Under the pieces are notes generated by a model. It ran no database searches, had not been told where the DNA came from, and worked only from the letters and a program-made list of their open reading frames with translations. A stretch of 44,754 nucleotides of DNA, taken from positions 1 to 44,754 of the forward strand of contig NZ_JARBHJ010000020.1 in NCBI RefSeq assembly GCF_028864145.1. Direction: 5' to 3'. The stretch is from Actinotignum schaalii (GTDB lineage Bacteria > Actinomycetota > Actinomycetes > Actinomycetales > Actinomycetaceae). The position numbers and the translations under genes were made by a program. Of the stretch, positions 1 through 18,619 are shown piece after piece (the first letter of the stretch is position 1; every line of letters begins with the position of its first letter).

Positions 1-13
1 AGGAAATTATTGC

Positions 14-48
14 TTGACCTGTGTCTGATATCCAGTCCTTATTAGTAT
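14..48 (+). promoter_or_regulatory. possible promoter before the first small ORF
   Basis: A TTGACC hexamer at 14-19 is followed after 18 bases by CTTATT (38-43), and TAGTAT (43-48) lies just downstream. Either could serve as a -10 box for the ORF starting at 61. The match is visual and the window starts only 13 bases upstream, so confidence is low. Confidence 0.3.
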
Positions 49-60
49 CGAAACCAGACA

Positions 61-297
61 ATGACAATCATGATTCGAGAACACAGATACACCACTAACC
101 AGGACTTGACCGTGTATGCGGAACAACAGACGTACGAAATCATGAGGATTTCGGTGCGTGGGGAGACGCTTTATTCTAGTGATGAAAGCTTGAGCGCCAG
201 TGTTGTTTCCCGTTATTTCAATGGTAATTGGAGGGCTTCTGCGGAGGAACTGCTTCGAGCACCTACTCACGCTACTTGCACCCCAATTGACTGGTAA
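61..297 (+). CDS. small hypothetical protein, 78 aa
   Basis: I do not recognise this protein. It is soluble-looking, with no signal peptide or membrane segment, and contains two prolines and one cysteine near the C-terminus (ATCTPIDW). A stop codon at 43-45 shows that the frame is not the tail of a longer gene running in from the left. No clear Shine-Dalgarno precedes the ATG at 61; a second ATG at 70 is an alternative start. It lies in the same AT-rich block as the two lipoproteins and is separated from them by a strong hairpin (315-349). It may be a real small gene linked to that operon or a chance frame; the antisense frame over 7-348 is equally open. Confidence 0.35.
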   Translation: MTIMIREHRYTTNQDLTVYAEQQTYEIMRISVRGETLYSSDESLSASVVSRYFNGNWRASAEELLRAPTHATCTPIDW

Positions 298-314
298 GTA
301 GTTCTGAGTGCTGT

Positions 315-349
315 AGTGGGTGGCGCGGGAGGTCCCCTCGCCACCCACT
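315..349 (+). terminator. strong hairpin, terminator or attenuator
   Basis: Perfect 11-bp inverted repeat: AGTGGGTGGCG at 315-325 pairs with CGCCACCCACT at 339-349 around a 13-base loop. No U-run follows, so it is not a textbook intrinsic terminator. It lies 20 bases upstream of the first lipoprotein start, close to its Shine-Dalgarno, so it could also modulate read-through or protect the downstream mRNA. Confidence 0.5.
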
Positions 350-369
350 CGATTTAGCGGGGAGGCTCG

Positions 370-1077
370 ATGAAGAGAATTTTTGTTTGTTTAGTAGTCG
401 CTGTGCTGATCCCGATTAGTGGCTGCGCAGGCGAAGGTTCTGGAGGAGCTGAAAATGCTCGAACAACGGCTTCCTCCGAATGGAATCCTAATTCTTGGAC
501 CTCTGACATAGAGATTCCTCCTAAATTCACCACGGAGAATGAGAAGTTCGCTTTTCGGGACCAGTGGTTACGGAGGAATGCGAAATCCATGGGGCTTTCT
601 GATCCCCCGGATATTCCTCTTGTTGCGTGGCAAAACGTATCGCAGGAACGCAATGAAAAACTCGCCGAGTGTTATCGGCTTAAGGGATTCAGTGCTCATG
701 CTCGCCCCCAAGGCGGCCTCTTGTTTGATCCAGCTGTTCCCGAAGCACAAAACGAATCTTTTAACTTGGCGACACACGAGTGTTATTCGAAATACTTTCT
801 CGATCCCGAGTTTCTTGCGAATTTGACCGAGGATCAGTTGCGGGTGCAGTGGGATTATTGGGATGAATACTATATTCCCTGCTTGGCAGCGCATGGTTTT
901 GTTGTTGATACGTCCGAGCGTCCGGCTCGGGAAACGTATGCTACGACGTTTTACTCTGATGCTGAGCATCGCTGGTGGCCGGATAATAAGGGTGAGCTTT
1001 CTTTCCGAATCACGCCGGAAGTTATGAAAGTTTGTCCCGAAAGACCGCCAATTACAGAATTTTACGGGATCAATTGA
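370..1077 (+). CDS. putative lipoprotein, tandem paralogue 1
   Basis: A 235-residue exported lipoprotein of unknown function. The N-terminus is a type II signal peptide ending in the lipobox ISGC, with the lipidated cysteine at residue 19, then a Gly/Ser/Ala linker. The mature part is about 35% identical or better to the next gene. It shares four cysteines with it in the contexts AEC, HEC/YEC, IPC and the final CPE, which suggests two disulfides outside the membrane. The block around DYWDEYYIPCLAAHG is nearly identical in both. A GGGGAGG Shine-Dalgarno ends 4 bases before ATG 370. It is the first gene of an apparent operon with the MacAB-like exporter, so it may be a partner or substrate-binding component; that role is inferred. 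One 60-base row across its start is only 43% GC, unlike the window in general. Confidence 0.85.
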   Translation: MKRIFVCLVVAVLIPISGCAGEGSGGAENARTTASSEWNPNSWTSDIEIPPKFTTENEKFAFRDQWLRRNAKSMGLSDPPDIPLVAWQNVSQERNEKLAECYRLKGFSAHARPQGGLLFDPAVPEAQNESFNLATHECYSKYFLDPEFLANLTEDQLRVQWDYWDEYYIPCLAAHGFVVDTSERPARETYATTFYSDAEHRWWPDNKGELSFRITPEVMKVCPERPPITEFYGIN

Positions 1078-1100
1078 TGCGCAGCGGATAGAGGTGTCGC

Positions 1101-1826
1101 ATGAAGTACAGGATTGTACCTGTCTTTAGTTTGCTACTCATGGCAGTGGGCGGTTGCGCCGCGGGTGGTTCCGGTTCTGGAAGTGCCGGCGCAACCAGTC
1201 ACGGCACCGCTGTAGCCCAAGCATCCGAATGGGATCCGAATACCTGGAAAGCGAAGATCAAGATCTCGCCCCGCTACACCACCGAGGAGGAGAAGCTCGC
1301 CTTTCGAGAACGATGGTTGAAACGTGATGCGGAGTTTTTGGGAATTGACGATCCTCCCGATGTTCCTTTGGTTGAATGGCAAGAGTCATCGGAACAGTCG
1401 GACATCAAAATGGCTGAGTGTTTGACCAACAAGGGTTTTGGATTCCACGTCAATCCCAAAGGTGGGATCGCTTCCAATGGGAGTATTCCAGAATCGCAAG
1501 AGCAGGCATATAAATTAGCTAGTTACGAATGCAATGCGATGTATTTCCTCAATCCGGAATTTCTTACCAACTGGTCGGAAGATCAATTGCGAGTGATATG
1601 GGATTACTGGGATGAATACTATATTCCCTGCCTCGCCGCGCATGGTTATAAGGTTGATATCTCCAAACGTCCCGCTCGGGAAACCTATGTTGCTAAGTTC
1701 CATACCGATCCGGAGCACCGCTGGTGGCCGGATAACGGCGGTTCTCTCGGATTCAAAATCCCGGTAGAGGTATGGAAAATCTGCCCGGAGACTCCTCCCG
1801 CCACAGAATTCTATGGAATAAAATAA
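1101..1826 (+). CDS. putative lipoprotein, tandem paralogue 2
   Basis: A 241-residue lipoprotein paralogous to the gene immediately upstream, which it follows by 23 bases. The signal peptide ends in a lipobox-like VGGC with the cysteine at residue 19, followed by a Gly/Ser-rich tether of about 20 residues. The same four mature cysteines, the WNPN/WDPNTW motif, the FRERWLKRDAEFLGIDDPPD stretch, the DYWDEYYIPCLAAHG core and the C-terminal TEFYGI are conserved. The DNA over the core is almost identical between the copies, pointing to fairly recent duplication or gene conversion. A GAGG ribosome-binding site precedes ATG 1101. It is 58 bases from the exporter adaptor gene. No known enzymatic motif is visible; a function with the exporter is inferred only from position. 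Confidence 0.85.
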   Translation: MKYRIVPVFSLLLMAVGGCAAGGSGSGSAGATSHGTAVAQASEWDPNTWKAKIKISPRYTTEEEKLAFRERWLKRDAEFLGIDDPPDVPLVEWQESSEQSDIKMAECLTNKGFGFHVNPKGGIASNGSIPESQEQAYKLASYECNAMYFLNPEFLTNWSEDQLRVIWDYWDEYYIPCLAAHGYKVDISKRPARETYVAKFHTDPEHRWWPDNGGSLGFKIPVEVWKICPETPPATEFYGIK

Positions 1827-1884
1827 CCCCATGATGTTTACCATTCACGTGTAAGCGCGTGGCTACCACGAAAGGCGTGCTGCC

Positions 1885-3138
1885 ATGAACAAGAAAATAA
1901 CTCAGATCCTCGTAGGCGTGATAGCGCTCCTCCTCGTGGCGGCACTAGCATTCTGGGCGGGCCGCACCACCCTGAAATCCCCGGAGCGGATCACCCAAAC
2001 GGGAGCGGAGACAATGACCGTCACCGTAACCGAGCAAAATATTGGCCGCACCCTCACACTCTCCACCACAGTAGAACGCGCGGCACAACCGGTTGCCGTC
2101 AACCAGCTCAACGGCACCATCACCTCCGTTGCCGCAGACGGAGAATTCCACGCCGGAGACACCCTCTACACCGTCGGAAATACCGAGGTAATCGCGGCAG
2201 AAGGTTCCACCCCCTTCTGGCGGCCCCTCGCCGAAGGAACTGAAGGTGAGGACGTCTCCCAATACCAGCGGCTCCTTGCCACCCTCGGTTATTCGCGAAC
2301 CGTGGCAGATGGGAAATTTGGCCCCGCCACCACCGCGGCAACGAAAGCGTGGCAAAAAGCGCGCGGGCAGGAACAGAGCGGCGTCGTCGGCCTGGGAGAA
2401 CTTGTGGCAGTGCCGCAACTACCAGCTGCGCTCACCTTGGACCGCAGTATTGCCTGGCCCGGTGCGGCCCTGACCGGAAGTGAAAATATTATTAACTCGG
2501 TGTCAGGAACGCCCAGTTTTTATATGGAAATCACGCGCGAACAGCAGGCCATGATTCAGCCGGGAATGGGTATTCGCGTCAAGCTGGGTGAACAGCCCCT
2601 CATCGGTATTACCGGTGAGCCGGAGGAAACAGAAGGGGGCCAGGTCAAGGTCCCTGTTACCGCGGAAGACGGCGGGCTGCTGTGCGGCACTCGGTGCGGG
2701 GAATTACCGGCGAGCCAAAAAGCCTATCTCCTTACAGATATTGAGATCGTGCCCGCGGTGACCGGGCCTACCGTGCCGGTCTCCGCGCTATCCACCATGC
2801 CGGATGGGACCGTGAGCGTGAGGGTCGTGGGGGAGGCCGCGCCCCGCACCGTCACGGTTCAGACCGTGGCCGGCGGCCTGGCGGTAGTTGAGGGAGTGCG
2901 GGCCGGAGAAAGCGTGTATGCGTTGGCCGACGCAAAGAAGGCCGGCGTGCCCGGTGGGTCCGGTACGTCTGGTGGTTCCGACACCCCCGGTGGTTCCGGC
3001 GCTGATACCGGATCCCGCGAAGGTTCAGAAACCGGCCCCGGCGCAGATTCAGGCACGGACACTAGCGAAGGCACGGAAACCGACCCTAGCGCAGATGCAG
3101 AAACCGAAGCCACCCCGAGCCCGGAAAGCACGAAGTAA
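1885..3138 (+). CDS. membrane-fusion/adaptor protein with peptidoglycan-binding domain
   Basis: A 417-residue HlyD/MacA-like adaptor subunit of an ABC exporter. One N-terminal transmembrane helix spans about residues 8-26. A lipoyl/hairpin-type region follows (motif NGTITSVAADGEFHAGDTLY). It is interrupted by a PG_binding_1-like domain at about 120-165 (EGEDVSQYQRLLATLGY, FGPATTAATKAWQ). Beta-rich adaptor domains follow, ending in a motif like VRVVGEAAPRTVTVQ. The last ~65 residues are a low-complexity Gly/Ser/Thr tail becoming Glu/Asp-rich. The peptidoglycan-binding insert would tether the exporter to the wall of a Gram-positive cell, where there is no outer-membrane channel. AAAGG lies at 1871-1875. 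The stop codon overlaps the ATPase start (TAATG), indicating translational coupling. Substrate unknown. Confidence 0.85.
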   Translation: MNKKITQILVGVIALLLVAALAFWAGRTTLKSPERITQTGAETMTVTVTEQNIGRTLTLSTTVERAAQPVAVNQLNGTITSVAADGEFHAGDTLYTVGNTEVIAAEGSTPFWRPLAEGTEGEDVSQYQRLLATLGYSRTVADGKFGPATTAATKAWQKARGQEQSGVVGLGELVAVPQLPAALTLDRSIAWPGAALTGSENIINSVSGTPSFYMEITREQQAMIQPGMGIRVKLGEQPLIGITGEPEETEGGQVKVPVTAEDGGLLCGTRCGELPASQKAYLLTDIEIVPAVTGPTVPVSALSTMPDGTVSVRVVGEAAPRTVTVQTVAGGLAVVEGVRAGESVYALADAKKAGVPGGSGTSGGSDTPGGSGADTGSREGSETGPGADSGTDTSEGTETDPSADAETEATPSPESTK

Positions 3139-3785: not shown

Positions 3786-4870
3786 AATTCGCTGTTCTGC
3801 TACGCGAAGGCGCGAAAAATGCGCGCGGGGCCCTGGTTACCACCATTCTGGTGGCCCTGGTGCTCGGGGTGATGTGCGCGGCGTCCTTAGTGACGGTGGG
3901 CCGCCAGGCCGCCACCGAAGCCGAGCTGCACCGCCAGCTCACCGGCCCCCAAGCCCGCCAGCTCACCCTCATTGACCAGAATAACGCCGGGCTGCTCCCC
4001 GAAGCATTCCTGGAAACCCTGCACGGTACCTCCGGGGTGGCCGGGGTAGTGGGATACCGGAGCACGGTGGACGTGGTCAATGGGCCGCTCGGCCCGGCCT
4101 CCCAGTTATTCGCCCTGGTGGAAACCGGTGGCGACATCTCGAAAATAATTACATTAACTGCTGGGCGTTATCCCGGTCCGGGGGAAGCGATCGTGCCCGA
4201 GGCCATGCTGCCGCAGCTGCGCCTGGCCTTCCCCAGCGGCTACGTGGAATCGCGCGGCGGGCGGCAATGGGCCGTGGTCGGCTCCTTCACACCCGGCGGC
4301 GGATTTGAGGACCTCGATAATTACCTTCTGGCCGGGGGCGGCTCGGGCGCCTACGTGCGGGTGACCGCGCTGGCCAACGACGTCGAAAATATTGGCGCGG
4401 TTACCGATGTTGCACTCGCGGCCATCGGTGATTTCGACCCCACCAAACTCATTATCCGCAGTTCCGTCAGCCAAGCGAAACAGGGCGTGGCCGTGACCGG
4501 GCAGGTCGCGGGCATGGGCCGCGCCCTCCTCATCCTCATTCTCGGGGTGGGGGCGCTCTTCATCGCCGCGGTGGTGCTGGCCGATGTGCTGATCCGCCGC
4601 CGCGACCTGGGCCGGCGCCGCACCCTCGGCATCACCCGCGGCGGGCTGGTGGCCCTGGTGATCGCGCGTATCGCCTACCCGGCTGTGGGCGGCACCGCGC
4701 TGGGAATAGCCGCGGCCTGGGCTTATTGCCGGCTGAGTGGCAATCCGGTCGCCCTCGATTTTTCGGTGGCGGTGGGGGTGCTCGCGGTGCTCGTGGCGCT
4801 GCTCGCCTGCATTCCCCCGGCGATTTTCGCTGCCTACCGTGACCCGGTGGAGGTCATGCGCACGCCGTAG
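3782..4870 (+). CDS. ABC transporter permease, FtsX/MacB-like
   Basis: A 362-residue permease. One transmembrane helix near residues 17-40 (ALVTTILVALVLGVMCAA) is followed by an extracytoplasmic domain of about 190 residues. Three C-terminal helices follow, with the FtsX-type sequence DVLIRRRDLGRRRTLGITRG in the first cytoplasmic loop. The start ATG at 3782 forms an ATGA overlap with the ATPase stop; the longer frame from 3716 is rejected because it would overlap the ATPase by 70 bases. The gene completes an adaptor-ATPase-permease exporter. The classical MacB substrates are macrolides or secreted peptides; the substrate here is unknown. The PaiB-like gene begins 23 bases later from its own promoter. 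Confidence 0.9.
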   Translation: MKFAVLLREGAKNARGALVTTILVALVLGVMCAASLVTVGRQAATEAELHRQLTGPQARQLTLIDQNNAGLLPEAFLETLHGTSGVAGVVGYRSTVDVVNGPLGPASQLFALVETGGDISKIITLTAGRYPGPGEAIVPEAMLPQLRLAFPSGYVESRGGRQWAVVGSFTPGGGFEDLDNYLLAGGGSGAYVRVTALANDVENIGAVTDVALAAIGDFDPTKLIIRSSVSQAKQGVAVTGQVAGMGRALLILILGVGALFIAAVVLADVLIRRRDLGRRRTLGITRGGLVALVIARIAYPAVGGTALGIAAAWAYCRLSGNPVALDFSVAVGVLAVLVALLACIPPAIFAAYRDPVEVMRTP

Positions 4871-7575: not shown

Positions 7576-10500
7576 GTGACAGGTTTTAACTGGCGCCGCC
7601 TGGGCGGATTATCCGTCACGGCTGCGCTCGCCTTAAGCGTACTCACTACTCCGGCGCTCGCTGCGGATCAGCCAGCGCCGTCGAATCCCGCCGGCGCTTT
7701 CGCCGGTCTCTTCTCTCCCGATAACCCCGAACTGGCTGCCTTCCAGGATTTGCAGGGCTCCACTGAACGGGTGCGGGTTATTGTGCTCCTCAAGGACCGG
7801 TCGCGCCTGGGCAGCGATGCCGGTGAGGCGCAGAGCCTGGCCACACAGGACGACCTGGTGGCACAGTGGTCGGAGAAGTACGGTCTGCAGCTTGAGCGCC
7901 AGTTCGGCTACCTCGTCAATGGTTTCGCCGCGACGATGCCGGCGGATAAGATGGCGGCTCTGGAAGCGGAAGCCGCGGTGGCCTCGGTCAAGCGTGAGCG
8001 CGTCTACCAGACGACGAACGTTGCCGCGACCGAGCGTGCGGCCGATATTTCCCGCGCCGTCGCCCAGAGCGCGCTCGCTCAGAACGCGGCTGCCACGGGT
8101 TCCCTCGCACAGGGCACCCTCGCAACGCAGCCGCAGGAAAATGTGCCCCTCGAAGATGCCTCGCGCGATATGCAGGGTGCACCCGCGGCCCTGGCTGATG
8201 CCGGCGCGGATGGCACCGGTATGGTTATTGCGATTGTGGACACGGGTATCGACCCGACTCACCGCGATATGCGCATCGACAATTGCGATACCGCGAAGAT
8301 TAAGAATATTAACACCGCTGCGAACCCCGCTTTCACGTGTAAGGTTCCCAACGGTTACAACTACGCCGATGATAATTTCGAGATCGTCGATACCACTTCG
8401 TCCATGCACGGTATGCACGTGGCCGGTATTGCCGCGGCGAATGGCTTGGATGAAGGGCAAACCTTTGCGACCGCCGGTCGGGTGGAAGGTATGGCCCCCA
8501 ATGCCCAGCTGCTGGCGATGAAGGTCTTCTCCAATGACCCGGCGCGTTCACGCGGCGCGGCCGACGGCGATATTATTGCCGCCATTGAAGATTCCGTGAA
8601 GCTGGGTGCCGACGTTATTAACCTCTCGCTGGGCTCCGATAACGGTTTTGGATACTCCAACGGTGCGGGCCTGGCTATTGAAGAAGCCCGAGCCAAGGGC
8701 GTGCTTGCGGTGATTTCCGCCGGTAACTCCGGGCTCAACTTCTCGCCGAGCGGTACCGAAGACGATATGTTTGGTAAATGGGACGACGGCGTGATCGGCT
8801 CGCCTTCGGCTCATGATGCCACGCTTTCGGTTGCCTCGATTGACAATAATTTTGAAACTCGCTCGGTCGCTCGTGTGACCGTGAACGGCGCATCCGAAGA
8901 TCTCTTCTACGAACTTGCCACCGGCAAGCCGGATAATGTGGCCCGCGAAGCGGTGGCCGCCGGAACCGGTAAGCCGGAAGAATTCCCGGAAGGTACCGCC
9001 GGTAAATACGCTCTGATTGAGCGCGGCGGCATCACCTTCGGGGAGAAATTCGGTAATGCGCAAAAGGCCGGTGCGGCCGGTGTGATTATCTACAACCACG
9101 AAGCCGGCGGGGATTCCATGATCTCCATGGGCGGTATTGACGAATACACCTTCCCCGGTGGCGTGATGTTCCGCTCCGACGCGCTGCGCCTCGTGGAGGC
9201 GATCAAGGCCGGCACCCCGGTCACTATCGCCCTCACGGATGAAGCCCGGACCACGCCCTCGGCCACGGCCGGTGCTCCCTCCAGCTTCACCTCCTGGGGC
9301 CCGACCTCCAACCTGGACTTCAAGCCGAATATTTCGGGTGTGGGCGGTAACGTCTACTCCACGCTGAATTCCAATACCTACGGCTCGATGTCCGGTACCT
9401 CCATGGCCGCCCCGAACGTGGCCGGTTCCATGGCCAGCGTGCTTCAGGTTCTCGGGGAGCGCTTCCCGGATATGTCCCGGGCGGATCGCCTCAGCCTGGC
9501 GGAAACGCTGCTCATGAACACCGCGGAGATTCCGCGGCACGACGGTGTTCCTTACGCCCCGCGCCAGATCGGCGCCGGTTTGGTGCGCGTGGATCACGCT
9601 CTGGCCTCCCAGGTGCACGCCCGCGTGGACGGCGCTAATTCGGTGGCTCTGGGCCAGGTGAACGGGCCGGTGTCCTTCACCGTGACCCTCACCAATCACG
9701 GCGATAAGGAAGCGGCTTACGCGATTCCGCGTCAGGAAGTCGTCAACGAAACGAATAACGCTAACGACATCACCTCCACTTTCATTTCCAAGGAAACGCT
9801 GACGGCGGACCGTAAGGTCCTCACCGTGGCGCCCGGGGAAACCACCCAGGTCACCTTCACGCTCACCCCGAGCAAGGGTAACCACTTCGTGGAAGGCTGG
9901 GCGGTGCTCGCCGGCGTGCAGGATACTCCGGATATTAAGGTGCCCTACCTTGGCTTCGCCGGGGACTGGAACGCCGAACCCATTTTCGTGGCACCGGGTC
10001 AGACCTGGGGTGAGGGAAATACCTCCACCTCCCAGCTGACCACCACGCTCTTCGGGATGACCCTCCCCATGAAGAACAATATCTTCGGGGAATTCTGGCT
10101 CTCGCCGAATAAGGACAATAGCGCTGATACGGTTGTCCCGAATTTGACGCAACTGCGTAACGCGGAAGAAGCCCAGTTCGAAATCTACGATGCGGCCGGC
10201 AAGCTCGTAACGCGCGTGGGTGAGGAACAGGAACTCTCTCGCCAGATCGCGGGTACTGCCCTCGGCACGAAGAATATTGCGCAGCCCTACCGCAGCCACG
10301 CTTTCAATGGCACGGTGTGGGATGCGGCCAGCGCGAGCTTCAAGGCGATTCCGGATGGGCGCTACACCTACCGCGTCAAGGCGCGCCTGGGTGATCGTTT
10401 CGACTGGCAGACCCTCGATATGCCCTTCGGCGTGGATACCGTTGCCCCCGAAGTTTCCGTGGGTGAACCCTTCGAGCGTGATGGACAGAAGATCCTGCCC

Positions 10501-13491
10501 TTCACCGTGACCGAAACCGGCTCGGGGATTTTCTCCTCGCCGATTGTGGAAACGGATAAGGGCGGCCAGATCAAGCCGGTCACCAAGAATTCCGATTCTT
10601 CCTTCGAAGTGGTGCTTCCCGAGGGCGTTTCCTACGTTGTGGTCACCGTGGGCGACCTGGGTATGAATACCACCATGGTCACCAAGGTGCTGGGCGCGAA
10701 TGCCATTGAGATCCCGAACCTGAAGAAGTACAACACCGAGGTCTTCACCCCGAATCACAGCCTTGTCAAGGATGGCAAGCTGACCGTCTTCGGCCTGGCT
10801 TCCGATGCGGTGGCCCGCGTGAGCGTGGCCGGTGCGGATGCGGAGCTCAGTGGGGGACTCTTCGGTGCCCAGGTTGCGCTGACCGAAGGCACCCAGAATA
10901 TCCCCGTGGTTGCCTACGGTGATAACGGCCGCGAAATCACCCGCACGGTGCTGACCGTCACCTACGATTCGGTGGCCCCGAGCGTGGCGATTACCTCCCT
11001 CAATGCCGGCGGCAAGCAGCCGGTGGCCGAGGACGGTTCCGTCACGATCACCGGTAATGTGCGTGATGAGCGCGCCGGCGCTACCCTCACTGTCAAGATC
11101 AACGGCAAGGCCGTTGAGGTGGATGCCACCGGTGGCTTCACCACTACCTTCACCCCGGAAGCTGATGCCGTCAGCGCCACCGTGGTGGCCTCCGATGGCG
11201 GAAATACCACCACCGAAACGGTCACCTACGAAGGCCGGGAGGTCGTGGCGGAAGATACGTCGTCGTACCAAGCACCTACCTTCACGAATGTGCAATGCTT
11301 CGGCACCACCTGCCTACCGGATATGTCCACCGCGGAAAAGACGGCGGACGGCAAGCTGGTGCTGCGCGGTAAGGCGCAGGGCGTCTCCGCCTTTGTGCTT
11401 CAGCCGCGCGTGACCGTGAACGAGGCCGGCGACTACGTTGTTCCGGAAGCGATTAACGTGAACGTGCAGGCCGATGGCACCTTCGAAGCCGCGGTGCCGG
11501 TGACCACCGGTATTAACGCCTTCCACATGAAGGTGACCGATACCGCGGGCAAGGTTCGTATGGATACCATCCTGCGTGTCTTCTGGGATACCGGGTACCC
11601 CAAGGTGTCCTTCACGGAACCGACCCTGTATAACGGCGTGCTCTACGCGAATTCGGATGAGGTCACCTTCGCGGGTACCGCCTCCGATGATGCTTGGGGT
11701 TACGAACTGAAGATCAACGGCTCGGTGGTGCGCAGCATTATCGACCACACCGTGGGCGGCACCAAGACCAATACCCGCAGCTTCAACCAGGCATTCCCGG
11801 TTGCGGACGGCGATACGGTCCTCGTGCAATTCGGTGACGGAATGGGCAATACCCTGCTCAACACCATCCCCGTGGTGGTGGATAAGGACGGCCCGGCGGT
11901 GAGCATCAACGGCACGGACGGCGCGGTTATTCGCGACGGCGCTGCCATTGCCACCAGCGTGACCGACCCCAACCTCAAGGCCGCGCGCGTGCTCCTCAAC
12001 GGGGACGTGCTCAGCGAGCAGAGCACCGATGCGAGCCTGCTCGGCCAGAGCGTTGAGGACAGCCTCGTGGACGTTAAGACCTACTTCGGTGGCGGAAACG
12101 ACGCGGGTGCGAACGGTGCGGATGCCGCGAAGGCCGTGCAGGTTGATGCTAACGGTGTGGCGGATAAGAACGACGCCGCACGCGTGGTTGCGGGCGTGAA
12201 GGACGCGGCCGGGCTTATGGCTGAGGCCGATGCTCCGGTTGCCGACGACGCAGCGGCCGGCGATACCGCCGGTGAGGCTGCGACCGCTCTCAACTACACC
12301 GTGGAAACCGCCGCGCTGCCGGCCGGTACCTACACCCTCACGGTGGAAGGCACCGACCTGGCCGGTAATTCCACCGCGCAGTCCATCTCCTTCACGAAGG
12401 ACAGCCTGCCCGTGATCGAGGGTCCGGACACCGTGGAACTCACGGCGCCCGCCGGCGCTCTTGACCGGCAAGCACTGGCCGCCGAGGTACTCGCCAAGTA
12501 CACGGTGAAGGACGACGGCGCAGCCGGGGCTGCGGGCGATACCGCTCTCACCCTGGCACCGGGCACGGTGCTCAACCCGGGCGAGAATACGGTGACCCTC
12601 ATTGCCACCGATGCTGCCGGGGCTGCCGTCACCAAGAGTGTCACGGTTACGGTGACTCAGGAGAGCGCTCCGGCGCCGTCTCCCACTCCGGGTGAGCCGG
12701 GCACGCCGGGTACCCCGGAGCCGACGCCTGCGCCGAACCCGACCCCTGCGCCGAACCCGACGCCGGGTACGCCCGGCACGCCGGCCCCCGAACCGGGCAA
12801 GCCGAGTGATACCGGGAACGTGTTCTACCTGTCCAATGATTGGGTCTCCACGGTTGCCCAGCAGGTCTTCTCCTACGGGCGAGCCGCAGATCAGGTCCTC
12901 ATCGGTGACTGGGATGGTGACGGCAAGGAAACCTTGGCAGTGCGCCGCGGTAACCAGATCTTCATCCAGAACAGCCTCACCGGAGGCGTGGCCGATGAAG
13001 TGATTTCCTTCGGGCGCGCCGATGACACCATCGTGGTCGGTGACTGGGATGGGGATGGCAAGGATACCTTCGCGGTGCGCCGTGGCAACCAGGTATTCGT
13101 CCTCAACTCGATCCGTTCCGGGGATGCCGACCAGGTATTCAGCTTCGGCCGCGAGGCCGACGTGCTGCTGGCCGGTGATTTCGATGGGGATGGCAAGGAT
13201 ACCTTCGCGGTGCAGCGTGGGAATGTGTTCTTCGTGAATAACACCCTCACGGGCGGCAAGGCGGAAACGTCCTTCTCCTACGGCAAGGCCGGTGACCAGA
13301 TCTTTGTTGGTGACTGGGATGGTGACGGTAAGGATACCTTCGCGGTACGCCGCGGCAACCAGGTGTTTGTGGCGAACTCGCTCAAGAGCGGGAACGCTGA
13401 TATCACCCTCTACTATGGCCGGGCTGGTGACCAGATGCTGGTTGGTGACTGGGACGGGGATGGTGTTGATACCCCCATCGTCCGCCGCTAA
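7576..13491 (+). CDS. secreted subtilisin-like (S8) protease with PA domain and C-terminal FG-GAP-like repeats
   Basis: A 1971-residue exported serine protease. A signal peptide ends near ALA-AD (about residue 29). An inhibitor_I9-like propeptide covers about 50-150, then the catalytic domain with Asp222 (VDTGID), His281 (HGMHVAG) and Ser609 (GTSMAAP). A PA domain (about 440-540) is inserted between His and Ser. Several Fn3/Ig-like beta modules with DTVAPEVS-type openings follow. A Pro/Thr/Gly linker (about 1695-1745) leads to five repeats of exactly 45 residues built around GDWDGDGKDTFAVRRGN, with Ca-binding-type DxDxD. No LPXTG or membrane anchor is present, so the repeats may hold it at the surface. 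The layout resembles lactocepin/C5a peptidase-type surface proteases. GTG 7576 follows a strong AGGAGAAGG site. Likely role: digestion of host or environmental protein, inferred. Confidence 0.93.
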   Translation: MTGFNWRRLGGLSVTAALALSVLTTPALAADQPAPSNPAGAFAGLFSPDNPELAAFQDLQGSTERVRVIVLLKDRSRLGSDAGEAQSLATQDDLVAQWSEKYGLQLERQFGYLVNGFAATMPADKMAALEAEAAVASVKRERVYQTTNVAATERAADISRAVAQSALAQNAAATGSLAQGTLATQPQENVPLEDASRDMQGAPAALADAGADGTGMVIAIVDTGIDPTHRDMRIDNCDTAKIKNINTAANPAFTCKVPNGYNYADDNFEIVDTTSSMHGMHVAGIAAANGLDEGQTFATAGRVEGMAPNAQLLAMKVFSNDPARSRGAADGDIIAAIEDSVKLGADVINLSLGSDNGFGYSNGAGLAIEEARAKGVLAVISAGNSGLNFSPSGTEDDMFGKWDDGVIGSPSAHDATLSVASIDNNFETRSVARVTVNGASEDLFYELATGKPDNVAREAVAAGTGKPEEFPEGTAGKYALIERGGITFGEKFGNAQKAGAAGVIIYNHEAGGDSMISMGGIDEYTFPGGVMFRSDALRLVEAIKAGTPVTIALTDEARTTPSATAGAPSSFTSWGPTSNLDFKPNISGVGGNVYSTLNSNTYGSMSGTSMAAPNVAGSMASVLQVLGERFPDMSRADRLSLAETLLMNTAEIPRHDGVPYAPRQIGAGLVRVDHALASQVHARVDGANSVALGQVNGPVSFTVTLTNHGDKEAAYAIPRQEVVNETNNANDITSTFISKETLTADRKVLTVAPGETTQVTFTLTPSKGNHFVEGWAVLAGVQDTPDIKVPYLGFAGDWNAEPIFVAPGQTWGEGNTSTSQLTTTLFGMTLPMKNNIFGEFWLSPNKDNSADTVVPNLTQLRNAEEAQFEIYDAAGKLVTRVGEEQELSRQIAGTALGTKNIAQPYRSHAFNGTVWDAASASFKAIPDGRYTYRVKARLGDRFDWQTLDMPFGVDTVAPEVSVGEPFERDGQKILPFTVTETGSGIFSSPIVETDKGGQIKPVTKNSDSSFEVVLPEGVSYVVVTVGDLGMNTTMVTKVLGANAIEIPNLKKYNTEVFTPNHSLVKDGKLTVFGLASDAVARVSVAGADAELSGGLFGAQVALTEGTQNIPVVAYGDNGREITRTVLTVTYDSVAPSVAITSLNAGGKQPVAEDGSVTITGNVRDERAGATLTVKINGKAVEVDATGGFTTTFTPEADAVSATVVASDGGNTTTETVTYEGREVVAEDTSSYQAPTFTNVQCFGTTCLPDMSTAEKTADGKLVLRGKAQGVSAFVLQPRVTVNEAGDYVVPEAINVNVQADGTFEAAVPVTTGINAFHMKVTDTAGKVRMDTILRVFWDTGYPKVSFTEPTLYNGVLYANSDEVTFAGTASDDAWGYELKINGSVVRSIIDHTVGGTKTNTRSFNQAFPVADGDTVLVQFGDGMGNTLLNTIPVVVDKDGPAVSINGTDGAVIRDGAAIATSVTDPNLKAARVLLNGDVLSEQSTDASLLGQSVEDSLVDVKTYFGGGNDAGANGADAAKAVQVDANGVADKNDAARVVAGVKDAAGLMAEADAPVADDAAAGDTAGEAATALNYTVETAALPAGTYTLTVEGTDLAGNSTAQSISFTKDSLPVIEGPDTVELTAPAGALDRQALAAEVLAKYTVKDDGAAGAAGDTALTLAPGTVLNPGENTVTLIATDAAGAAVTKSVTVTVTQESAPAPSPTPGEPGTPGTPEPTPAPNPTPAPNPTPGTPGTPAPEPGKPSDTGNVFYLSNDWVSTVAQQVFSYGRAADQVLIGDWDGDGKETLAVRRGNQIFIQNSLTGGVADEVISFGRADDTIVVGDWDGDGKDTFAVRRGNQVFVLNSIRSGDADQVFSFGREADVLLAGDFDGDGKDTFAVQRGNVFFVNNTLTGGKAETSFSYGKAGDQIFVGDWDGDGKDTFAVRRGNQVFVANSLKSGNADITLYYGRAGDQMLVGDWDGDGVDTPIVRR
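12904..13488 (+). repeat. five 135-base in-frame repeats encoding DWDGDG motifs
   Basis: The codons for the GDWDGDG/GDFDGDG motif begin at 12904, 13039, 13174, 13309 and 13444, an exact 135-base period. Each unit encodes about FSYGRAGDQ-x5-GDWDGDGKDTFAVRRGN-x-FV-x-NSL. The third copy has Phe for Trp and Gln for the first Arg; the fifth ends in VDTPIVRR. The units look like FG-GAP/VCBS-type propeller blades with calcium sites. Confidence 0.9.
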
Positions 13492-15229: not shown

Positions 15230-15919
15230 TTACCCCGCGGCAGCGGTAGCACGTGCCTCCTTTAGCTCGGCGTTCGGCGGGAGGATCGGCTGGAGGGTGA
15301 GGGTGCGGTCGGTGCGGGCGGCGATGCTCGGGTCGTGGGTGACAAGTAGCAGGGCGCAATCGCGTTCGCGCACGGTATCGAGGATGAGGCTGAGGACCTC
15401 GTCGCGCAGCTCAGTATCCAGCGCTCCAGTCGGTTCATCAGCCACCAGCAGGCGCGGGTGATTAATGAGCGCCCGGGCCAGCGCTACTCGCTGGCGTTCT
15501 CCGCCGGAGAGGTTTTCAGCCATCGTTTGGGGAAGGACACCTAGGGTGCCAAGGAGCTCGCTGGCCTCGGTGGCGACGTCGCCATCATGACGGTTCCACA
15601 GCAGGCGCGGAAGCATCACGTTATCGAGGGCGGTGTATCCGGCCATGAGTTCGCCGTGCTGGAAAACGGTGCCGATGGTTGTGGAACGCAGGCGCGCGAG
15701 GCGGTTGAAGGGGAGGCGGTGAATATTGGTGTCGGTCACCTCGATGGTGCCGGAGATGGGTTTATGCATCCCCAGAATCGTGGTGAGGAGGGTTGTTTTC
15801 CCCACACCGGAGCGGCCCATAACGGTGAGGGTGTCCCCGCCGTTGAGGGTGAAAGTGATGGGGCTGAACAGCGGGTGGGTGTAGCCGCAGACGAGGTTGT
15901 CACAGTGCAGAATACTCAT
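15230..15919 (-). CDS. ABC transporter ATP-binding protein, bacteriocin-export-like
   Basis: A 229-residue ATPase with Walker A GRSGVGKTT (35-43), Q-loop VFQHGEL, signature LSGGE (137-141), Walker B LLVADEPTGALD (from 157) and switch THD (His195). The DEPTGALD form places it in the MacB/LolD group, which includes the ATPases paired with lactococcin 972-type integral membrane proteins. It begins inside the 3' end of the permease gene (20-base overlap), with GAAAGG before the ATG, so it is translationally coupled. It has no adaptor subunit beside it, unlike the other two exporters in this window. A 12-residue Ala/Glu-rich tail closes the protein. Partner: the 697-residue permease; the substrate is probably the small secreted peptide at 18018-18350 (inferred). 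Confidence 0.9.
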   Translation of the reverse strand: MSILHCDNLVCGYTHPLFSPITFTLNGGDTLTVMGRSGVGKTTLLTTILGMHKPISGTIEVTDTNIHRLPFNRLARLRSTTIGTVFQHGELMAGYTALDNVMLPRLLWNRHDGDVATEASELLGTLGVLPQTMAENLSGGERQRVALARALINHPRLLVADEPTGALDTELRDEVLSLILDTVRERDCALLLVTHDPSIAARTDRTLTLQPILPPNAELKEARATAAAG

Positions 15920-17993
15920 GGTGATCCTTTCCCGGGCGCCACGCGCGGGCCCGTGCGGTTAGCCGGCGATACACAAGAATGGATTGCGCGGCGATGAAAC
16001 AGCCGTAAATCGCGGCGATGGTGAGGATGAACTCCCAGGGGATAAATCCGGTTCCGGGCAGTAAGAATTGCCGTGCCAGGAAGGTGCCGACCGCGAGGGC
16101 CGCGATCCCGGTCACGATATTGGTGGCGAGGGTGCGCCGGGCGAGGATGTGGGCAACCGTGCGGGTTTGCCCGGTGAGTGCCGTGATAGCGGCGGCGTCC
16201 CGTGCCTGGGCTTCGGCTTCGCGGGAGAAATTCAGCCACACCACCAGCAGCCCGCAAACGAAAGCGAAGGTCGTAAAGAGGCTGAGCCAGGTGGAATGCT
16301 GGCGGTAGATCTGCGCCAGGGCGCGGGTATTTTCACCCAGCGGTGTGGATAGCGCGGGGATCGGGGTGCCCAGATCCAAGCTGTGAATCTGGCTGAGGAG
16401 TTTTTCTCCAGAATCTGGGTCATCGGATTCGACGAGGGTGACGAGCCAGCCGCGGTCTATGTTTTCAGGGAGGTTTGGCTGTGGAGTTCCGTATAACGGC
16501 GCCAGGTAATCGGAAAGCACCAGCTCTAGATTTTCCGGAGTAACCTGCCCGGTTTCCAGCGGGACCACTCCGATTCCGTGGCCGGCGGCGATAATAGCAG
16601 CGTCGGGTCGAGCCGCGTGAATATGAGCGGCGGCATTTTCAAGGCAGCCCGGTGTATTGGGGCGGCACACAAGGGAAGAATAAACTGCACTGAGGTTCTC
16701 AGGAAGTGGGGGCATCTCCTTATCGGTATTCGCGACCGCGTTGAAGCAGGCGATTAATAGGGTTCCGATAATGAGGAAACAGCCTGCGAGGGTTCCGGAC
16801 CGGGAAGCTACCTCGGGATGGCGCATAACCCAGCGGGTGGTGAGATCAGTGAGGTGATCCCGGCGGGATCTGGTGGCGAGGCTTGCCGTGGCACGGGTAA
16901 GCAGTGTGAAAGTTGCCGGTAGGCCGAGTAGAACCAGAACAATTCCTATAGGAACGGCGGCAGAAGCAAGTTCCAAGGGAATCCACCAGAGATACCACTG
17001 GAATCCTGCTGCCAGAAGAATCCCAAGAGTGAAGAGAGCTAGGCCAAGCAGAGGACGCTTCCTTTTTTGCCGTGCTGGGCGCATTGAAAGCGTGAGGCGG
17101 GGCCAGGAGAAAAACAGCACGAGCGCAGCTAGTGTGACCAGTAAGGCGAGGATGATCCAGCCTAGTTGGGGAAGGAATGCCTGTGGGTGGAAGTGGAATC
17201 CGGTGAAAGGTAGGCGAATGGCACCACTGATGAGAATGGCGACCGCGGCACTACCCGATAGGCCACCAAGTAATACTGGGGGAATGACTCGGGGACTGGC
17301 GTGCCGAATGAGGTGACTGCGCCGTGCCCCCACGCATTGAAGAATGAATTGCTCCTGCGCGATGTTGCTCTGAAAATTCTTACGGCAGGCCGGGATGTAG
17401 AGGAGAATCGGTAGGACGATGACTACAATCACCAGAGGCAGAAGATGCTCGGCCCAATGCTCATATGTCACACTACCTATAGCTACAGTATCCGTACTGT
17501 TCGCGTCCACTGCGAATCCTGAAGCGAAATATACGCGGGACTCCATCCGAGCTTGTTCTAGAAAATCACCGACATTCGCCGGGCGTGCGTAAACCAATAG
17601 ATCATCATCAAGAGCTGCGTACTCATCAATAACAGCCGTAATGGGACCGAATTGTTGTTCAAGGGTTTCGCGGTAGCGGAGAGCGGGGCGGGTGACCGCC
17701 GCGCTCCCCGCTGCTGGCCAGGCGTTGAGCCCCGGAGGTGGAGGGACATCCGGTCGCAAAGGTTCCATGTAAAGAACACTCACGAGACGAGAGTCGATAA
17801 AGGTATTATCAACCCGATAGGCGAAAGTGGCTTTATCTTCGCTCGTCGTGTAGATAGGACCGCTTGTCTGAGCTACCTTGTTCCGGTACGGGAGCTCAAC
17901 ACCGATGGAAGCCAGTGAAAAAACCGCGATGACGCTCAATAAGGCCGCGGTAAACAGGGCCGGGAATGACCGCCGCTTAGTAGTGAAATTCAT
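15900..17993 (-). CDS. large FtsX-like ABC permease, resembles bacteriocin-associated integral membrane protein
   Basis: A 697-residue polytopic protein. An N-terminal helix (about 11-30) is followed by an external domain to about 185. A set of helices runs from about 185 to 425 (HLLPLVIVVIVLPILLYIP onwards). A second external domain (about 425-570) contains the closely spaced cysteines SLVCRPNTPGCLEN. Three final FtsX-type helices lie at about 580-690. The double helix-set with two ectodomains matches the large permeases paired with a single ATPase in lactococcin 972-like loci (DUF1430 type) and in MacB/LolC relatives. No good Shine-Dalgarno precedes ATG 17993, although the peptide gene ends only 24 bases upstream, so expression may depend on read-through from it. 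Assignment to the bacteriocin family rests on size, topology and neighbours, not on a profile match. Confidence 0.8.
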   Translation of the reverse strand: MNFTTKRRSFPALFTAALLSVIAVFSLASIGVELPYRNKVAQTSGPIYTTSEDKATFAYRVDNTFIDSRLVSVLYMEPLRPDVPPPPGLNAWPAAGSAAVTRPALRYRETLEQQFGPITAVIDEYAALDDDLLVYARPANVGDFLEQARMESRVYFASGFAVDANSTDTVAIGSVTYEHWAEHLLPLVIVVIVLPILLYIPACRKNFQSNIAQEQFILQCVGARRSHLIRHASPRVIPPVLLGGLSGSAAVAILISGAIRLPFTGFHFHPQAFLPQLGWIILALLVTLAALVLFFSWPRLTLSMRPARQKRKRPLLGLALFTLGILLAAGFQWYLWWIPLELASAAVPIGIVLVLLGLPATFTLLTRATASLATRSRRDHLTDLTTRWVMRHPEVASRSGTLAGCFLIIGTLLIACFNAVANTDKEMPPLPENLSAVYSSLVCRPNTPGCLENAAAHIHAARPDAAIIAAGHGIGVVPLETGQVTPENLELVLSDYLAPLYGTPQPNLPENIDRGWLVTLVESDDPDSGEKLLSQIHSLDLGTPIPALSTPLGENTRALAQIYRQHSTWLSLFTTFAFVCGLLVVWLNFSREAEAQARDAAAITALTGQTRTVAHILARRTLATNIVTGIAALAVGTFLARQFLLPGTGFIPWEFILTIAAIYGCFIAAQSILVYRRLTARARAWRPGKDHHEYSAL

Positions 17994-18017
17994 AATGGGT
18001 TGGGAAATGCTGTTTCA

Positions 18018-18350
18018 CTAATAGATCCAACCTCCACATGACATTGGTAGTGGTATGGGTTGCGAAACGCACGGTTTGATAGCGGTGATAGTGGAGCTAA
18101 CTGTTTTCGTGACGGTGGTATTGTATCCTGATTTGTTGACAAGGCTATTTTGGCTGGTGCCGCCATTATACTTATACAAAGCTGATACAAATTCGTCATC
18201 GTCCGCGTTGTCGGTAACGCTAATAGTCGGCCCGTTAGTTACGGTGTACTGGCCGTACATTGATCCGTTGTAGACGAGAGCAGCTGCCGTAGTAGTTGCT
18301 CCGGCAGCTAGTAGAATCCCTACTAAGCCCGCTGTTACTTTCCGTTTCAT
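18018..18350 (-). CDS. small secreted peptide precursor, bacteriocin-like candidate
   Basis: A 110-residue protein I cannot assign to a family. A clear signal peptide (KRK basic start, hydrophobic AGLVGILLAAGATTTAAA) should be cleaved near residue 25. The mature part of about 85 residues is rich in Ser, Thr, Asn, Tyr and Gly. It has an acidic patch (DNADDDE) and ends in a Cys-containing stretch, IKPCVSQPIPLPMSCGGWIY, whose two cysteines 11 residues apart could form a disulfide loop. It has the strongest Shine-Dalgarno of its operon (GGAGG, 7 bases from ATG 18350). It occupies the place that the precursor gene takes in lactococcin 972-type loci, but it lacks the Trp/His-rich pattern of that family. 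Base rows 18061-18240 contain 85 G/C in 180 (47%), far below neighbours, hinting at transfer or unusual selection. Confidence 0.75.
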   Translation of the reverse strand: MKRKVTAGLVGILLAAGATTTAAALVYNGSMYGQYTVTNGPTISVTDNADDDEFVSALYKYNGGTSQNSLVNKSGYNTTVTKTVSSTITAIKPCVSQPIPLPMSCGGWIY

Positions 18351-18371
18351 AATGAAACCTCCGTTTCGGTT

Positions 18372-18454
18372 GTTACCACCCAATAAGGCGATTTTGCCTA
18401 GGTGGGTAGCGTGCGCTCCGTTGCGCGGTGGGGAGAGCTGGAATCTTTCCCCAC
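18372..18454 (-). promoter_or_regulatory. structured leader of the peptide operon
   Basis: Upstream of the peptide gene, GTGGGGA and TCCCCAC (18428-18434 and 18448-18454) form a perfect 7-bp stem that would sit at the very 5' end of the transcript. A second element combines AGGC/GCCT and CCACC/GGTGG pairings around 18373-18414. The roughly 100-base leader is thus potentially folded. No known riboswitch pattern was recognised. Confidence 0.4.
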
Positions 18455-18459
18455 TTAGG

Positions 18460-18488
18460 ATTCTATGGGTACGCGAGTCTCAAGGGAA
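18460..18488 (-). promoter_or_regulatory. possible promoter of the peptide-exporter operon
   Basis: Reading the minus strand, TAGAAT (18465-18460) is a near-consensus -10 box, with the weak -35 candidate TTCCCT 17 bases further upstream. Transcription would start near 18453, at the edge of the 5' hairpin. Confidence 0.4.
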
Positions 18489-18506
18489 CTACGTCCTTTT
18501 GAGCTG

Positions 18507-18527
18507 ATAGCGAAATGTATTCGCTAT
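18507..18527. promoter_or_regulatory. perfect 8+8 palindrome, candidate operator between divergent genes
   Basis: ATAGCGAA (18507-18514) and TTCGCTAT (18520-18527) flank a 5-base centre. The right arm contains TTCGCT (18520-18525), 18 bases before TAAGAT (18544-18549), so the palindrome overlaps the likely -35 of the rightward gene. It also lies about 55-75 bases upstream of the leftward peptide-operon start. A regulator bound here could control both directions. Confidence 0.5.
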
Positions 18528-18549
18528 TTGGGTTTTCGTTATATAAGAT
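18520..18549 (+). promoter_or_regulatory. possible promoter of the 18620 membrane protein gene
   Basis: TTCGCT, 18 bases, then TAAGAT within an AT-rich run (TATATAAGATTATTGG). The transcript would begin near 18556 with a leader holding an imperfect stem GGGGAGTTCT/AGAATCCCC (18567-18587) before the ribosome-binding site. Confidence 0.45.
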
Positions 18550-18619
18550 TATTGGTTATTTTGGATGGGGAGTTCTGTAGAATCCCCCTAACAGCCCATT
18601 ACATAGGGAGGAGCCGCCC

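What the first reader, a model, noticed from the sequence alone, without database searches (positions are those of the whole stretch)
15230..18350. Candidate undescribed bacteriocin-type locus: secreted Cys-pair peptide plus dedicated ABC permease and ATPase
Seen: a 110-residue signal-peptide protein ending in two cysteines and an aromatic tail, the best ribosome-binding site of the group, then 24 bases later a 697-residue two-ectodomain permease and an overlapping ATPase, with no adaptor subunit. Known: lactococcin 972 loci have the order precursor, large DUF1430-type membrane protein, ATPase. Inferred: the peptide is the exported effector, but its sequence lacks the lactococcin 972 pattern, so it may be a new precursor family. 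Its DNA is about 47% GC in 180 counted bases against well over 60% nearby.
Basis: partly seen in the sequence, partly recalled or inferred. Interest (0 to 1): 0.75.

Follow-up and report, generated by a model that had tools for sequence, protein, structure and literature searches.

The report
New bacteriocin-like peptide with ABC partner
A small actinobacterium carries a secreted two-cysteine protein that fits no known family, locked together with an ABC machine that related species keep after losing the protein; this is what one would expect of an undescribed antibacterial peptide and its immunity system.

Summary
The peptide belongs to a real family that no Pfam, NCBIfam or PHROGs model and no PDB sequence explains, found in 24 of 213 genomes of the bacterial family and 23 of 396 of the order (window included). 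In 42 of 47 other peptide loci a related permease lies directly downstream; three of the five exceptions end at contig ends. The permease has the YbbP plan (10 TM, two ectodomains). It is not lactococcin 972: such loci in the same bacterial family have unrelated precursors and another permease clade. "Dedicated exporter" is weakened: the peptide has its own signal segment, and 9 of 15 permeases of the clade lack an intact peptide; two peptide-less pairs tested show purifying selection. In two sister species the peptide is gone and ectodomain 1 is another allele (51-52% identity, other segments 77-99%). I read it as a peptide/immunity cassette with ectodomain 1 setting specificity. Antibacterial activity is inferred, not shown. 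Against: two loci keep the peptide with a broken permease; one distant homologue has no transporter nearby.

The parts
18018..18350 (-). secreted two-cysteine peptide (110 aa): N-terminal signal segment, beta-rich mature part, C94/C105/W108
   Evidence: signal segment by inspection, no predictor was run
18351..18600 (-). upstream region with GGAGG ribosome-binding site; conserved in four genomes of the genus, two of which lack the peptide
   Evidence: no promoter identified (2 promoter-like sites found, 2.3 expected)
17994..18017 (-). 24-base gap between peptide stop and permease start
15900..17993 (-). type VII (YbbP-like) ABC permease, 697 aa, 10 TM, two ectodomains
17469..17888 (-). permease ectodomain 1 (residues about 36-175): allelic between peptide-bearing and peptide-less sister species
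16314..16733 (-). permease ectodomain 2 (residues about 421-560)
15230..15919 (-). ABC ATPase, 229 aa, Walker A / LSGGE / ADEP motifs present
17200..18333 (-). cassette (peptide + TM1 + ectodomain 1): replaced in G017/G071, 96-99% identical between window and G047; borders approximate

Best explanation
A bacteriocin-type competition locus. The peptide leaves by Sec, its signal segment is cut off, and C94-C105 closes a disulphide on a small beta-rich domain that acts on the envelope of related bacteria. Permease and ATPase form a type VII (mechanotransmission) ABC machine. It does not carry the peptide across the membrane but, as proposed for BceAB, works outside the membrane to free the producer's own target: immunity. 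Ectodomain 1 is the part most likely to recognise the peptide, because it is exchanged together with the peptide gene. Shown here: the family, its linkage, gene orders, topology, repeated absence of the peptide beside kept machines, and the exchanged segment. Inferred: export route, disulphide, antibacterial action, immunity, ectodomain 1 as specificity part. The molecular target is unknown.
For: 42 of 47 peptide loci have a related permease ORF within 1.2 kb downstream on the same strand, 41 of these also an ATPase. In the order-level loci L146-L163, which were not used to build the permease model, it is 15 of 19. The link survives a change of gene order: of 33 loci 15 are peptide-permease-ATPase and 18 peptide-ATPase-permease. 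It holds also in G308, related to the window only at phylum level. Signal segment; all-beta model, pLDDT 76.8. Permease fold nearest YbbAP (E 7.7e-7) and BceAB (2.2e-6). Transporter without intact peptide: 9 of 15 intact permeases of the clade, at least 4 changes on the tree; permease dN/dS 0.14 (G017/G071) and 0.24 (G068/G044), both pairs peptide-less, against 0.18 for the peptide-bearing G000/G047. Scraps of peptide genes beside intact transporters in L044, L072, L074 and, by eye, L077 (profile E 0.015, 0.0018, 0.0012, 0.44) and a broken frame in L047/L048. Cassette exchange. [quoted passage not shown] 157 of 571 genomes have scbBC only (PMC11796350, passages).
Against: No activity data. Two loci keep a peptide with a broken permease (G141/L051 and G180/L130); G097/L055 has both broken. 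A distant homologue in G327 has no related permease or ATPase in the 14 kb read. Co-divergence of peptide and permease is weak (Mantel r 0.158; 40 of 2000 permutations as high). Foldseek gives no confident fold for the peptide (best E 0.022). In the other peptide-less clade ectodomain 1 is the best conserved or second best conserved part, not a swapped one, so the exchange is seen in one genus only. In pneumococcus, scbBC-only strains were inhibited by streptococcin B, though their promoter was silent in the conditions tested (PMC11796350, passages): kept genes are no proof of protection.
Confidence: 0.58

Rival explanations
1. The peptide is not an effector but the extracytoplasmic partner subunit of the ABC machine, as EnvC is for FtsEX and TesA for YbbAP; the complex does housekeeping work in the envelope.
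For: Type VII systems recurrently pair with a partner protein that defines their function (PMC12646458, passages); peptide and machine are tightly linked.
Against: 9 of 15 intact permeases of the clade have no intact peptide, and two peptide-less pairs show purifying selection. The peptide occurs in only 24 of 213 genomes of the bacterial family.
Confidence: 0.18
2. The ABC machine is a dedicated exporter of the peptide.
For: Constant linkage; MacAB-TolC, of the same superfamily, has roles in toxin secretion (PMC12646458, passages).
Against: The peptide has its own signal segment. Type VII machines typically do not move substrates across the cytoplasmic membrane (PMC12646458, passages). Exporters without cargo should decay, yet two peptide-less pairs are under selection. 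Streptococcin B is secreted without ComAB in a background that lacks BlpAB (PMC11796350, passages).
Confidence: 0.1
3. The peptide is a signal, a host-directed or a matrix protein, and the ABC machine senses or removes it.
For: Small secreted beta-rich protein; no activity data exclude it.
Against: Spread over the order in genomes of 1.5 to 8.3 Mb; producer/non-producer-like polymorphism.
Confidence: 0.09
4. A divergent member of the lactococcin 972 family.
For: Like layout of precursor, large membrane protein and ATPase in the same bacterial family; lactococcin 972 is a beta-sandwich (PMC11796350, passages) and our model is all beta.
Against: No PF09683 hit in P0001, 17 members or 31 members. 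Profile comparison of the precursors aligns only the signal segment (probability 38.7), of the permeases only 76 columns (90.5). A control profile of local lactococcin 972 members finds 9hkj and 2lgn in the PDB; the peptide profile finds neither.
Confidence: 0.05

Closest known systems
Lactococcin 972 family loci (PF09683 precursor, TIGR01654/DUF1430 permease, TIGR03608 ATPase)
   Same: Three-gene layout; secreted small precursor; partner ABC genes proposed for immunity; natural strains without the precursor that keep the other genes (PMC4055356, PMC6120550, PMC11796350: passages).
   Different: No precursor homology found; two conserved cysteines; another permease clade; 18 of 33 relatives have the ATPase before the permease.
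YbbAP (E. coli type VII ABC)
   Same: 10 TM helices, ectodomains between TM1-2 and TM7-8, separate ATPase (PMC12646458, passages).
   Different: The linked gene is a small peptide, not the hydrolase TesA; TM-score only 0.38, 13% identity.
BceAB-type peptide-antibiotic protection transporters
   Same: Type VII fold (Foldseek 2.2e-6); proposed target protection (PMC7038271: title, abstract and outline seen).
   Different: [quoted passage not shown] here there are two ectodomains.

Membership tests
Lactococcin 972 bacteriocins | precursor matches PF09683 | tested here: not met
   the model does find 8 places in 6 of 61 genomes of the same bacterial family
Lactococcin 972 bacteriocins | permease matches TIGR01654 or DUF1430 | tested here: not met
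   none of 25. Weak test: local lactococcin 972 permeases match TIGR01654 in only 3 of 7, best E 0.0024, DUF1430 in 1 of 7
Lactococcin 972 bacteriocins | ATPase matches TIGR03608 above cut-off | tested here: not met
   137 bits against 254.85
Lactococcin 972 bacteriocins | order precursor, membrane protein, ATPase | tested here: met
   window, and 15 of 33 relatives; the other 18 have the ATPase second
Lactococcin 972 bacteriocins | beta-sandwich precursor | tested here: inconclusive
   seven strands predicted; no confident PDB match, lactococcin 972 not among the 50 rows shown of 1481
Lactococcin 972 bacteriocins | lipid II binding / septum inhibition | not testable with these tools
   needs experiment
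Type VII ABC (MacB/LolCDE/YbbAP/BceAB superfamily) | FtsX-like fold with ectodomain after TM1 (and TM7), separate ATPase | tested here: met
   PF02687 weakly in 6 of 25 members; model mean pLDDT only 65
Type VII ABC (MacB/LolCDE/YbbAP/BceAB superfamily) | ATPase motifs intact | tested here: met
   six of the six ATPases looked at
BceAB | single large ectodomain | tested here: not met
   two ectodomains
LolCDE lipoprotein release | LolD model above cut-off | tested here: not met
   174 bits against 307.75; the peptide has no cysteine near its signal segment

The most novel reading that the evidence does not exclude
An undescribed class of Sec-exported, disulphide-looped bacteriocins, spread through the order of the window's genome and beyond, each paired with a YbbP-type two-ectodomain ABC immunity machine. 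Peptide gene and ectodomain 1 travel as one recombining cassette, so that ectodomain 1 is a swappable immunity-specificity module.
Probability: 0.4. Interest if true: 0.75.

Novelty: new variant of a known kind. Interest (0 to 1): 0.6.

Why it matters
If true, it adds an unnamed bacteriocin family in actinobacteria and makes an open point testable: for lactococcin 972-type loci the function of the partner genes is reported as unverified (PMC11796350, passages). Here nature supplies matched alleles of one operon: with peptide and ectodomain 1 of one type, and without peptide and with ectodomain 1 of another type.

Tried and rejected
Rejected: lactococcin 972 membership. Rejected: low GC as a sign of recent import, since it is general in the family. 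Rejected: consensus promoter or terminator evidence (2 promoter-like sites against 2.3 expected, 6 terminator-like against 4.5). Rejected: stray family hits, not shared by relatives: Peptidase_C25_C E 0.038 and SdpC 0.069 for the window peptide; OMP_b-brl in 2 of 17 members, best 9.5e-5, gone when 31 relatives without most of the signal part were scanned; single hits at 0.0039 and 0.0058. Led nowhere: viral contigs (55 pattern matches, none confirmed), plasmids (36 records, the 20 listed only over the ATPase, none for the peptide), the Rhodospirillaceae hit L086 (peptide model E 0.037 only), Mantel test (weak). Literature: nine searches; no listed title or abstract beginning describes this peptide family; most listed papers were not opened, only the best-ranked of each search were listed, and subscription journals are not held. 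Not done: signal-peptide predictor, complex model of peptide and ectodomain, cassette test beyond the pairs.
Full report
What is there. On the minus strand, window 18350-18018 encodes a 110-aa protein with an N-terminal hydrophobic signal segment, cysteines at 94 and 105 and the tail GGWIY; after 24 bases follows a 697-aa permease (17993-15900) and, overlapping by 20 bases, a 229-aa ABC ATPase (15919-15230). The window's genome has 2.2 Mb.

The peptide is a new family. The window peptide has no Pfam or NCBIfam hit better than E 0.038. Of 17 members, two match OMP_b-brl (best 9.5e-5) and single ones other models; none of this recurs when 31 members trimmed to their last 92 residues (84 in one) are scanned (Pfam and PHROGs none, NCBIfam one at 0.0058). 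A profile of 17 finds nothing in the PDB (best E 1.5). Control: a profile of seven lactococcin 972 precursors of the same bacterial family finds 9hkj (4e-17) and 2lgn (0.004). In 17 members A22, D47, D51, N72, G75, C94, C105 and W108 are invariant; in 31 both D, the G, both C and the W are at 90% or more. Counting the window's genome, the profile finds 24 of 213 genomes of the bacterial family, 23 of 396 of the order and 2 of 396 of the phylum; a wider profile finds 4 of 246 of the phylum.

The link to the transporter. I fetched the surroundings of the peptide places (E up to 1e-3), 30, 32 and 53 and scored the ORFs. With split genes, tandem copies and a doubly fetched place counted once there are 47 peptide loci besides the window. 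In 42 a related permease ORF lies within 1.2 kb downstream on the same strand, 39 of them at least 600 aa long, and 41 also have the ATPase. Of the five others, L061, L151 and L152 have the peptide near a contig end (L151 with the ATPase before the end), and L162 and L163 are weak hits (E 8e-6 and 1e-4), the second unrelated by eye. Among the order-level loci L146-L163, not used to build the permease model, 15 of 19 are linked. Of 33 loci with a long permease, 15 have the order peptide-permease-ATPase and 18 peptide-ATPase-permease. Of the three other genomes, G338 and G308 are linked; G327, a 9.7-Mb genome of the same class, has no related permease or ATPase in the 14 kb read. Base rate: the window's genome has 24 ABC ATPase matches and one permease match; 200 genomes of the family have 41 listed permease match places in 33 genomes.

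The machine. No family model names the permease (PF02687 FtsX weakly in 6 of 25). Hydropathy gives 10 TM segments with ectodomains after TM1 and TM7, the plan described for YbbP (PMC12646458, passages). AF2 from five sequences is mediocre (pLDDT 65), but Foldseek finds YbbAP (7.7e-7) and BceAB (2.2e-6), and LolCDE and MacB more weakly. The ATPase is of LolD/FtsE/MacB type and lies below the cut-offs of the 25 models shown. The peptide model is all beta, seven strands, pLDDT 76.8 with residues 1-20 of low confidence; PDB matches are weak immunoglobulin/fibronectin-like folds (best E 0.022).

Not lactococcin 972. PF09683 precursors occur in 6 of 61 genomes of the same bacterial family (8 places, one with an inner stop), each followed by a large ORF and an ABC ATPase (by eye). 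Seven of these precursors align with ours only in the signal segment (probability 38.7), their permeases over 76 columns (90.5). So two systems of like layout occur in one bacterial family, and in G027 and G058 even in one genome.

Absence of the peptide, retention of the machine. In two sister species, G017 and G071, upstream region, ribosome-binding site and the first codons are kept, but the rest of the peptide gene is missing and the permease follows. Elsewhere scraps lie beside transporters: a cut signal segment in L044, C-terminal or inner scraps in L072, L073 and L074 (profile E 0.001-0.015), and by eye signal segments in L077 and perhaps L075 (profile E 0.44 and 2.1); L047 and L048 have broken frames. 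The transporters of L073 and L075 are broken too. L046, L132, L049 and L052 show no convincing remnant. On a quick tree of 20 permeases, 9 without and 11 with an intact peptide need at least 4 changes, fewer than shuffled labels (mean 6.9), as near-copies share the state; several long branches make deep joins unsure. Without the four outgroups and the order-level row, 9 of 15 lack it. Peptide-less pairs show purifying selection on the permease: dN/dS 0.14 for G017/G071 and 0.24 for G068/G044, against 0.18 for the peptide-bearing G000/G047; other peptide-less permeases were not tested so. The reverse case exists: G141 (L051) and G180 (L130) have a peptide but a broken permease, G097 (L055) has both broken.

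An exchanged cassette. Sliding identity over the locus shows G017 and G071 at 87-99% to the window in the full 300-base steps outside the block, but at 64% in 17501-17800, 73-74% in 17801-18100 and 81-82% in 17201-17500 (the step 18400-18101 has only 70 aligned bases, 84-91%). Window and G047, both with peptide, are 96-99% identical from 18400 to 17201, while the steps upstream are at 81-90%, the rest of the permease at 90-95%, the ATPase part at 96-98% and the steps beyond at 57-94% (lowest where P0004 is absent in G047). By segment window/G017 identity is 77% in TM1, 51% in ectodomain 1 (synonymous differences 0.67 per site, against 0.08-0.28 elsewhere), then 88, 90 and 98%; G071 gives 77, 52, 90, 86 and 99%. 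The jump in synonymous differences means that a DNA segment was replaced, not that residues changed fast. Peptide presence and ectodomain 1 type go together in this genus (two alleles, four genomes, hence few events). In the other clade (G026, G068, G044, G055, G128, G121) no such swap is seen in the pairs compared; there ectodomain 1 is mostly the best conserved part.

Reading. Own signal segment, type VII machine, absence of the peptide beside kept machines, and co-exchange of the peptide with one ectodomain fit a bacteriocin with an immunity machine better than a dedicated exporter or an obligate subunit. A like strain pattern is described for streptococcins (PMC6120550, passages; PMC11796350, passages). 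Lactococcin 972 binds lipid II and its orf2-orf3 are held to give immunity (PMC4055356, passages). BceAB is proposed to act by target protection (PMC7038271, title, abstract and outline). That our peptide hits lipid II is not claimed. A caution: in the pneumococcal study scbBC strains were inhibited, with their promoter silent in the conditions tested, so kept genes are no proof of protection.

Novelty. The kind (small secreted bacteriocin with ABC partner genes) is known; the precursor family, the permease clade and the ectodomain-1 cassette were not found in the libraries searched, nor in the titles and abstract beginnings listed by the nine paper searches.

Noticed in passing
window 15161-14706 (-), P0004: A 151-aa membrane protein behind the ATPase is present in the window, G017 and G071 but not in G047; no Pfam or NCBIfam hit better than E 0.049.
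   Followed up: partly
L061 (1-5204) and L062 (1-2782), genome G047: G047 seems to hold a second system: a divergent peptide near one contig end and an ATPase/permease at the start of another contig. The contigs were not joined.
   Followed up: no
L063 and L064, genome G105 (same genus): One genome carries two different peptide-transporter systems with opposite gene orders.
   Followed up: no
L156 6253-7106 (-): Two tandem peptide genes before one ATPase/permease pair, possibly a two-peptide system.
   Followed up: no
L129 (G055) 4376-4501: A C-terminal peptide scrap sits beside a second permease in the genome whose first system has a truncated peptide.
   Followed up: no
window 7576-13491 (+): A 1971-aa secreted protein that looks by eye like a subtilisin-type protease with C-terminal repeats; no model was run.
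   Followed up: no
window 1-2000: GC is 49-52% against 62.7% for the window.
   Followed up: no
L120 (G058): A window-type permease without recognisable peptide lies about 10 kb from a genuine lactococcin 972 locus.
   Followed up: no
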